From: Zeus faber
Lineage: Eukaryota > Chordata > Actinopteri > Zeiformes > Zeidae
Reading direction: 5' to 3'
NCBI GenBank assembly: GCA_960531495.1
Contig: OY482860.1
Location: 29,310,512-29,374,511, forward strand
Length of the DNA: 64,000 bases
In this document: one piece after another, positions 39,749-63,576 of the stretch
Numbering within the stretch: the stretch's first letter is position 1
How the letters are laid out: each line of letters opens with the position of its first letter
Notes under the pieces: model-generated
The model's database searches: none
The model's input: only the letters and a program-made list of their open reading frames with translations
What the model was told of the DNA's origin: nothing
Translations under genes and position numbers: made by a program

Positions 39749-40365
39749 TCAAAGCATCTCTGGGGGTTTGTTTACCTCCAGCTCCCACTTCTCCAGAAAA
39801 TCCTGCAGGTTCAAATTAAAAATGTCAATGCCTTTGGAGGACAGGTGGACGCCGTCGGCCCGGTACAGGCCGGTGTTGGAGCCGCAGCGGATATTGTCGT
39901 GCGTGAGGCTGGTGCCGCCCAGCTCAGAGATGATGGTGTGAATTCTGCGGTTGATTGTGGATCTGACCAGGTCTACTTCGTGGTTGTCTGCCGAGTGGCG
40001 CCACACCCTGCGGGGAAGGATGTAGGACCAGACCAAGAGACACTGGGGGAAGATGCTTCTCATGGAGGTCAGGTCCTTCTTCACCGACGCCAGCAGGTCG
40101 GTGGGGCTGTCCGTGCTCAGGTCGTTGCCTCCGAGGTGCATGATGAGCACGTCCGGGTTCGGCCACTTCACTTTCATCTGGTGGAGCTGGGGCAGTAACT
40201 GGGGCCACGTCATGCCCTGTGTCCCCTTCCACCATATCACCACGTTACTGGGGTCCATGCCTAGCTGCATACCCACCTCCGGAGACTTAGCCCTCGACTC
40301 TGCCCAGTAAACCAGAGAGTGGCCACAGATCCACACGTTCTTAGGCTCACTGCTGATCGGCAAAC
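39749..40365 (-). CDS. Last coding exon: SGNH hydrolase domain
   Basis: About 205 residues form an SGNH/GDSL-type esterase fold. Block I is VWICGHSLVYW with the nucleophile Ser at about residue 1836; block III is LGGNDLS (Asn about 1900); block V is RADGVHLSSKG (Asp about 1990, His about 1993). The GHSLVYW...GMTW...HLGGNDL pattern is that of SGNH domains carried by fish DIRS/Ngaro-type retroelements rather than of host lipases. The frame enters in phase 1 from exon 43875-43983 and runs to a stop at 39,749; a weak donor (GAG/GTAAAC) at 39,774-39,775 could shorten it by eight residues. Confidence 0.8.

Positions 40366-63576: not shown

What the first reader, a model, noticed from the sequence alone, without database searches (positions are those of the whole stretch)
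39749..63576. Composite gene: UNR-like cold-shock array + ZNF318-like RS region + SGNH hydrolase
Seen: 21 exons with GT/AG borders whose phases match at every junction give one 2,024-codon frame joining three unrelated modules. Known: UNR/CSDE1 binds RNA through alternating cold-shock domains, ZNF318 is a nuclear RS protein involved in RNA processing, and SGNH hydrolases are esterases. Inference: a single nuclear RNA-associated protein with a possible esterase tail. I know of no described vertebrate protein with this order of domains.
Basis: partly seen in the sequence, partly recalled or inferred. Interest (0 to 1): 0.88.

Follow-up and report, generated by a model that had tools for sequence, protein, structure and literature searches.

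The report
Fish ZNF318-like, cold-shock, esterase composite gene
A real, single fish gene joins an RNA-binding-type cold-shock array, the front half of a ZNF318-like nuclear protein and an apparently intact esterase domain of a kind otherwise seen in mobile elements; it is found from gar to modern teleosts, lies beside its ZNF318-like sister gene, and our searches found no paper on it.

Summary
It belongs to the family named si:dkeyp-121d4.3. Of 145 homologous entries examined, gar included, 110 carry all five module profiles. Two contigs of about 6.4 kb hold the whole chain in one frame, against 23.8 kb of genomic DNA here, which implies spliced mRNA.

The composite looks like its tandem paralogue: after a coil exon of the same phases, an SGNH exon takes the place of the zinc-finger half, and a CSDE1-like array has been gained upstream. 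SGNH is the best conserved module and mostly keeps its catalytic residues (S 111, G 114, N 114, D 110, H 110 of 114). Its nearest relatives are multi-copy reptile ORFs and, by profile in the PDB, a zebrafish retrotransposon esterase.

Function is inferred: an RNA-bound nuclear esterase. Location, RNA binding, substrate and activity are untested. The architecture already sits in databases under a placeholder name.

The parts
63058..63576 (-). exon 1, start codon and Pro/Gly/Trp-rich N-terminus
   Evidence: 3' border uncertain (1 of 19 orthologues continuous)
62906..62941 (-). exon 2
   Evidence: 5' border uncertain
62300..62490 (-). exon 3 (IKALISAP..., leads into first cold-shock domain)
   Evidence: 19 of 19 at both borders
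62061..62103 (-). exon 4, start of cold-shock domain 1
61694..61819 (-). exon 5, cold-shock domain 1
61144..61248 (-). exon 6
60060..60278 (-). exon 7, non-canonical CSD of unit 1
58205..58351 (-). exon 8, CSD of unit 1
   Evidence: donor score 6.2
56675..56836 (-). exon 9
56367..56585 (-). exon 10, non-canonical CSD of unit 2 (219 nt, as exon 7)
55611..55757 (-). exon 11, CSD of unit 2 (147 nt, as exon 8)
55085..55249 (-). exon 12, charged linker
54844..54996 (-). exon 13
   Evidence: 3' border uncertain
54070..54342 (-). exon 14, acidic linker and start of non-canonical CSD of unit 3
   Evidence: 5' border chosen by inspection, poor score, uncertain
51641..51745 (-). exon 15, non-canonical CSD of unit 3
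50897..51034 (-). exon 16, last cold-shock domain
   Evidence: acceptor 51034: 19 of 19 continuous
50333..50440 (-). exon 17
   Evidence: 19 of 19 at both borders
48371..48417 (-). exon 18 (MTIKLTK...), joins array to RS region
   Evidence: 19 of 19 at 5' border; 3' junction uncertain
44148..46593 (-). exon 19: RS region, SILKK, LLPHER..GFSRI and KIHSLLRTIGL motifs, Pro-rich part; start may be 46584
   Evidence: family profile of this region hits neighbour ORF 24651-25490, E 7.5e-20
43875..43983 (-). exon 20, coil exon, phase 0 in and 1 out, counterpart of neighbour exon 22834-22735
39749..40365 (-). exon 21, SGNH hydrolase domain and stop; catalytic S, G, N, D, H all present
14308..33717 (-). 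ZNF318-like gene, tandem neighbour directly downstream (context, not part of the composite)

Best explanation
Shown: window 63576-39749 (-) is one protein-coding gene of the family named si:dkeyp-121d4.3 after zebrafish, found in gar and across the teleost entries examined. Strongly inferred: it is a tandem paralogue of the ZNF318-like gene beside it. Compared with that gene it gained a CSDE1-like array of alternating non-canonical and canonical cold-shock domains upstream. After a coil exon of matching phases it ends in one exon coding an SGNH hydrolase instead of a zinc-finger half. Inferred mechanism: a nuclear RNP factor. The cold-shock array holds single-stranded RNA; the last domain is the most canonical and the earlier ones look worn. 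The RS and ZNF318-type middle places it with transcription-termination and RNA-processing machinery, as for ZFP318. The C-terminal SGNH domain is a working esterase that removes an acyl or acetyl group from a substrate brought to that RNP. Isoforms without the SGNH exon would give the scaffold without the enzyme. Confidence by step: one gene of this architecture, above 0.95; tandem paralogy, about 0.85; catalytically active, about 0.75; nuclear RNA-bound esterase as a whole, about 0.45.
For: Gene: 21 exons, 2,024 codons, controls far below. Conservation: 110 of 145 entries carry all five module profiles, gar P0174 among them. Transcript-sized contigs: P0058 (1,745 aa, longest contig 6,366 bases) and P0118 (1,978 aa, 6,443 bases) hold every module in one frame; P0001 joins coil exon to SGNH directly, where this window has a 3.5-kb intron. 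Paralogy: the family profile hits neighbour ORF 24651-25490 at E 7.5e-20, best ORF of the reversed window 1.3; coil exons match in phase, 109 against 100 nt; gar P0174 begins MYRGRP and holds IEDEEKFLYG and KIQTLLRTIGL, much as the neighbour does. CSDE1 link: Unr 6y6e, E 7.2e-29; unit profile best at zebrafish CSDE1 residues 342-456. Enzyme: catalytic residues in 111, 114, 114, 110 and 110 of 114; SGNH median identity to the window 65% in 60 entries picked as non-percomorph, other modules 29-37%; AlphaFold2 pLDDT 92.1; Foldseek finds SGNH acylhydrolases, sialate O-acetylesterase, PAF-AH and 4c1b. ZFP318 represses transcription termination (passages of PMC8861003); ZNF318 was a top TASOR/HUSH proximity hit (passages of PMC7532188).
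Against: No localisation, RNA-binding or enzyme data. The RNA-contact aromatics (motif recalled) are degenerate: at the RNP1 aromatic of the last CSD 51 of 137 members have F, 54 have L, and this window has L; in the first unit F is not among the five commonest letters. 18 of 145 entries lack only SGNH. Annotation splits the gene in two in two fish (C. tularosa P0005/P0086; P. tetrazona P0015/P0178). 9 of 114 tails lack one or more catalytic residues. The window protein alone matches the neighbour only weakly by BLAST (E 0.033), and LLPHER is absent from the neighbour. ZNF318's known roles may rest on the zinc-finger half that is missing here.
Confidence: 0.55

Rival explanations
1. The SGNH tail is a non-catalytic binding module (for lipid, RNA or protein), as in Oskar, so the protein is a scaffold and not an enzyme.
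For: SGNH folds without catalysis exist (Oskar is called non-catalytic in the PMC3905857 passages). The ZfL2-1 esterase binds liposomes and is slow. Seven odd clupeid relatives have all lost the serine.
Against: In the composite family S, G, N, D and H are kept in 110-114 of 114, which a pure binding role would not need.
Confidence: 0.2
2. The SGNH exon is an alternative last exon used by a minority of transcripts; the main product is a cold-shock/ZNF318-like protein ending after the coil.
For: 18 of 145 entries lack only SGNH. Entries with and without it come from contigs of the same length in O. mykiss (P0104/P0158), O. kisutch (P0105/P0161) and Brienomyrus (P0169/P0177).
Against: 121 of 145 carry the SGNH profile and it is the best conserved module. 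Transcript-sized contigs include it.
Confidence: 0.15
3. Two or three separate genes have been merged by prediction or by read-through between tandem neighbours.
For: One Sphaeramia model (P0182) really is a hybrid: its first 292 residues equal part of the composite P0076 and the rest resembles the neighbour gene. Two species have split models.
Against: 110 of 145 entries have all modules, 17 of 20 junctions are continuous in at least 16 of 19 orthologues, and the whole chain lies on contigs of about 6.4 kb. The split models break inside the ZNF region, not at module borders.
Confidence: 0.03

Closest known systems
ZNF318 / Zfp318 (matrin-type zinc-finger nuclear protein)
   Same: RS region, SILK(K/R) motif, KI(Q/H)xLLxTIGL motif, coil exon with the same phases, direct neighbour on the same strand; gar copy also shares MYRGRP and EEKFLYG. 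LLPHER..GFSRI as a human ZNF318 motif is recalled.
   Different: No zinc-finger half; ends in SGNH; has a cold-shock array; exon 19 spans what is at least two exons by profile hit, four by position, in the neighbour.
CSDE1 / UNR
   Same: Alternating non-canonical and canonical cold-shock domains; closest solved structures are Unr CSD456 and other Unr pieces; PF23456 in 6 of 6 and PF00313 in 4 of 6 orthologues over cut-off.
   Different: Fewer units by one unit profile (2 in 83 of 144 entries, 3 in this window, 5 in two CSDE1); PF12901 (SUZ-C) and PF14444, listed for CSDE1 hits, are not listed for composite hits; RS, ZNF318-like and SGNH parts added.
Retrotransposon SGNH esterases (CR1-clade ZfL2-1 ORF1p; Ngaro-like hydrolase ORF)
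   Same: SGNH fold and catalytic set; first PDB hit of the tail profile is ZfL2-1, 4c1b, E 7.7e-10.
   Different: Part of a host gene; one match in this genome at E <= 0.01; no Pfam domain in three ORFs near the exon, though weak DDE/HTH remnants lie about 3.2 kb downstream. By fold, 4c1b ranks only 46th.
Texim / teximY SGNH genes of fish (PMC4021074)
   Same: Fish genes coding an SGNH domain, reported as related to CR1 esterases and PAF-AH (abstract, passages and sections 5 and 6 read).
   Different: 15-exon genes tied to Helitrons and reported absent from zebrafish, whereas this family is named after a zebrafish gene. No texim sequence was in hand, so the relation was not tested.

Membership tests
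ZNF318 | N-half with RS region, SILK(K/R) and KIQxLLxTIGL motifs | tested here: met
   family profile against neighbour ORFs E 7.5e-20, and 8.2e-4 for the RS ORF, the latter possibly composition; basal orthologues E 2e-12 to 3e-9; window protein alone only 0.033; motifs placed. That the neighbour is znf318 rests on recall and on its match to P0182, a U1-type domain protein.
ZNF318 | Matrin/U1-type zinc fingers in the C-half | tested here: not met
   neighbour has two C2H2-type patterns at 18339-18271 and 17210-17142; Pfam supports the first weakly and below cut-off (6.1e-4), the second not at all; six orthologues of the composite show no zinc-finger hit
CSDE1/UNR | Alternating ncCSD-CSD array | tested here: met
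   the folded model is of P0178, mean pLDDT 58.2
CSDE1/UNR | C-terminal SUZ-C (PF12901) as in CSDE1 | tested here: not met
   not among Pfam hits of six orthologues nor listed for composite hits; listed for the CSDE1 hits shown
SGNH hydrolase | Catalytic S, G, N and H (with D) in blocks | tested here: met
   window has all; S 111, G 114, N 114, D 110, H 110 of 114
SGNH hydrolase | Flavodoxin-like SGNH fold | tested here: met
   AlphaFold2 pLDDT 92.1; Foldseek E down to 4.3e-9
SGNH hydrolase | Pfam PF13472 curated cut-off (32.9 bits) | tested here: not met
   window 25.2 bits; 0 of 6 orthologues reach it, best 32.3 in O. mykiss, although PF13472 is precomputed for some hits
SGNH hydrolase | Esterase activity | not testable with these tools
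   bench assay needed
Retrotransposon esterase | Carried by an element (many copies; RT or YR nearby) | tested here: not met
   1 match in the genome at E <= 0.01, 2 first-look candidates; three ORFs near the exon show no Pfam family; RT or YR not searched beyond these ORFs
Texim | Groups with texim SGNH sequences; Helitron nearby | not tested
   no texim sequence in hand; Helitrons not searched

The most novel reading that the evidence does not exclude
A vertebrate host gene built on a znf318 duplicate has domesticated a retroelement-type SGNH esterase and fused it to an RNA-binding array, making an enzyme that acts on nascent transcripts or their RNPs. Because ZNF318 lies close to the HUSH silencing complex, the protein may be a retroelement-control factor that recognises RNA with its cold-shock domains and uses a captured copy of the elements' own esterase against them.
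Probability: 0.12. Interest if true: 0.88.

Novelty: new variant of a known kind. Interest (0 to 1): 0.62.

Why it matters
It is a widely conserved but apparently undescribed fish gene in which a cold-shock array and an esterase domain share one chain, and the esterase is the part most strongly kept. The role of retrotransposon SGNH esterases is still hard to pin down (PMC3905857 passages). A single-copy host relative in fish offers a genetically tractable way to learn what such a domain does on an RNP. It also offers a natural dissection of ZNF318: the front half kept, the zinc fingers replaced.

Tried and rejected
Merged-gene artefact: rejected on orthologues and transcript-sized contigs.

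SGNH exon as a live mobile element in this genome: rejected; one match at E <= 0.01, two first-look candidates. A viral-contig scan with the SGNH alignment gave 31 pattern matches, none confirmed.

Direction of transfer between the tail and the TE-like reptile ORFs: not settled. In a 38-sequence tree of a chosen subset of the SGNH sequences (39 picked, P0037 dropped as too short), the fish tails fall on one side of a branch with support 100, but no outgroup roots it. 'TE-like' rests on eight Eublepharis LOC entries listed with six different contig lengths and a similar N-terminus in several.

The exon model with 58351-58031 running into a GT repeat and acceptors 54462, 51049 and 48495: replaced. 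For 54342 against 54462 neither scores nor orthologues decide. A regex count of catalytic motifs (86 of 114 met all) was replaced by alignment columns, because the regexes were too strict.

Deeper origin: one search listed 120 of 1,069 hits; after gar came the hybrid P0182 and then CSDE1. Sturgeon, bichir, shark or tetrapod copies are not excluded. Only part of the candidates was scored.

The model of the cold-shock array is of P0178 (Puntigrus), mean pLDDT 58.2, pTM 0.33, with ordered domains and disordered linkers. Species of the window and age in years were not determined.

Full report
What was checked. The finding claims one minus-strand gene of 21 exons and 2,024 codons. An exon-chain search bounded to 39600-63700, but given no borders, returned 21 exons from 63576 to 39749. 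Four borders were then changed, on a donor score (58205), on orthologues (51034), to the finding's own 48417, and by inspection (54342). A rerun on the cut-out region, with base composition taken from that region, scored 490.6 with 23 exons. Controls: plus strand 80.7; reversed 39.2; complement 48.3; three local shuffles 3.6, -5.9 and 2.8.

Orthologues. A search with residues 230-2027 gave 133 hits, 120 listed, many named si:dkeyp-121d4.3, two named zinc finger protein 318 or 318-like, several CSDE1. A profile of four of them gave 1,069 hits, 120 listed, and added gar (P0174) and alligator gar (P0181, partial); the next hits were the hybrid P0182 and then CSDE1 proper. Of the 145 entries P0038-P0182, 110 have all five module profiles, 2 lack only the RS/ILKK piece, 18 lack only SGNH, 3 lack coil and SGNH, 1 lacks only the coil, and 11 are other or partial. 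The 145 include isoforms and several entries of one species.

Transcript evidence. P0058 and P0118 are 1,745 and 1,978 aa proteins whose longest contigs are 6,366 and 6,443 bases, with cold-shock, RS, ZNF318, coil and SGNH parts in order. The window gene spans 23.8 kb, so such contigs should be spliced RNA. This is inference: no call explained the source code, and the gene structure in those species was not seen. P0001 runs from the coil exon straight into SGNH, whereas here 3.5 kb lie between them.

The neighbour. The downstream minus-strand gene, modelled at 33717-14308, has an RS region, SILKR at 29597-29583, EEKFLYG at 25205-25185, KIQDLLKTIGL at 24944-24912, a coil exon at 22834-22735 and two C2H2-type patterns at 18339-18271 and 17210-17142. 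Pfam supports the first finger weakly (6.1e-4, below cut-off) and the second not at all. Residues after 300 of P0182, a database 'U1-type domain-containing protein', match it in several exons, both finger exons included. The name znf318 is my recall of the human protein; no call names the neighbour. The composite family's profile hits its ORF 24651-25490 at E 7.5e-20 and its RS ORF at 8.2e-4 (possibly composition); the best ORF of the reversed window reaches 1.3. Basal orthologues align to it directly (E 2e-12 to 3e-9); the window protein itself does so only at 0.033. The coil exons match in phase (0 in, 1 out). In the composite the next exon is SGNH; in the neighbour it is ELLRKKRREK and, later, the fingers. 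Gar's composite starts MYRGRP, as the neighbour does. LLPHER, present in the composite, is absent from the neighbour. Hence a tandem paralogue. Composite exon 19 spans at least two neighbour exons by profile hit and four by position, which suggests intron loss.

The array. The profile of four orthologues matches Drosophila Unr CSD456 (7.2e-29) and other Unr/CSDE1 chains. A model of P0178 matches Unr CSD456 and the Unr CSD789 poly(A) complex by fold. By one unit profile, 83 of 144 entries (P0038-P0181) show 2 units, 51 show 3, 8 show 1 and 2 show 4; the window has 3. Two CSDE1 proteins show 5, four of them weaker, the best at residues 342-456 in zebrafish. Two exon pairs of equal length (219 and 147 nt) mark the extra unit in the window. 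In 137 members the last domain keeps the second aromatic of its FF motif in 133, but the RNP1 aromatic F in only 51.

The tail. The window exon gives Lipase_GDSL_2 at 2.6e-5, under cut-off; 0 of 6 orthologues reach the cut-off. A profile of 38 sequences finds 4c1b, the ZfL2-1 retrotransposon esterase, first in the PDB at 7.7e-10. AlphaFold2 gives pLDDT 92.1. Foldseek ranks bacterial acylhydrolases, designed scaffolds and sialate O-acetylesterase first, PAF-AH 16th and 4c1b 46th. Catalytic columns in 114 composite tails: S 111, G 114, N 114, D 110, H 110; nine tails lack one or more. Seven odd clupeid proteins were set apart before this count. SGNH is the best kept module: 88% median identity in 19 near orthologues and 65% in 60 entries that I picked as non-percomorph by name (one, P0118, is unnamed), against 29-37% there for the others (n 58-60). 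The nearest named relatives outside this family are about 38% identical and come from gecko, anole, worm lizard and caecilian. Eight are separate Eublepharis LOC entries on contigs of six different lengths, so they look like a dispersed element. Amphibian Ngaro-like elements carry an SGNH ORF (PMC9210276 passages); that the reptile ORFs are Ngaro is not shown.

Mechanism. ZFP318 represses a transcription-termination site in B cells (PMC8861003 passages) and ZNF318 is among the top proximity hits of TASOR (PMC7532188 passages). Joined to a UNR-type array and an intact esterase, the most likely role is a nuclear RNP-bound esterase. Shown: sequence, conservation, catalytic residues. Inferred: location, RNA binding, activity, substrate.

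In print. Zero held papers contain dkeyp-121d4.3. Judged by titles and abstract starts, the 20 of 217 papers listed for ZNF318, cold shock domain, CSDE1 and teleost and the 8 of 263 do not describe this architecture. Texim is a separately described fish SGNH family (abstract, passages and sections 5 and 6 of PMC4021074).

Noticed in passing
window 33717-14308 (-): ZNF318-like gene in tandem with the composite, same strand.
   Followed up: yes
window 2658-2263 (-): Exon of a PP2A B56 regulatory subunit (Pfam B56, E 2.5e-17).
   Followed up: partly
P0182 (Sphaeramia orbicularis): Database protein that is a hybrid: first 292 aa identical to part of the composite P0076, the rest matching the neighbour gene. 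Shared tandem order with read-through, or an annotation error.
   Followed up: partly
P0127, P0130, P0155, P0157, P0171, P0179, P0180 (herring-like fish): SGNH-like domains inside large proteins, some with PRY/SPRY domains, with the catalytic serine lost in 7 of 7: possible pseudoenzyme expansion.
   Followed up: partly
window 44148-46593 against 29553-30039, 24718-25457, 23704-24062, 23179-23279: One composite exon corresponds to several neighbour exons (two by profile, four by position): apparent intron loss with a following intron kept.
   Followed up: no
window 36995-38529: Minisatellite of 33-bp units, about 45 copies, open in several frames.
   Followed up: partly
window 36096-36579 (-) and 57464-57874 (+): Weak, below cut-off DDE/HTH transposase-like remnants between the two genes and in a composite intron.
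   Followed up: partly
L009 1746-4793 (+): Two adjoining long repetitive open frames of CFYYFNVTS-like units upstream of the composite gene.
   Followed up: no
G000 C15:5741357-5753678: Five cold-shock-domain matches clustered on another contig, perhaps csde1 (not checked), which would make the array's source unlinked.
   Followed up: no
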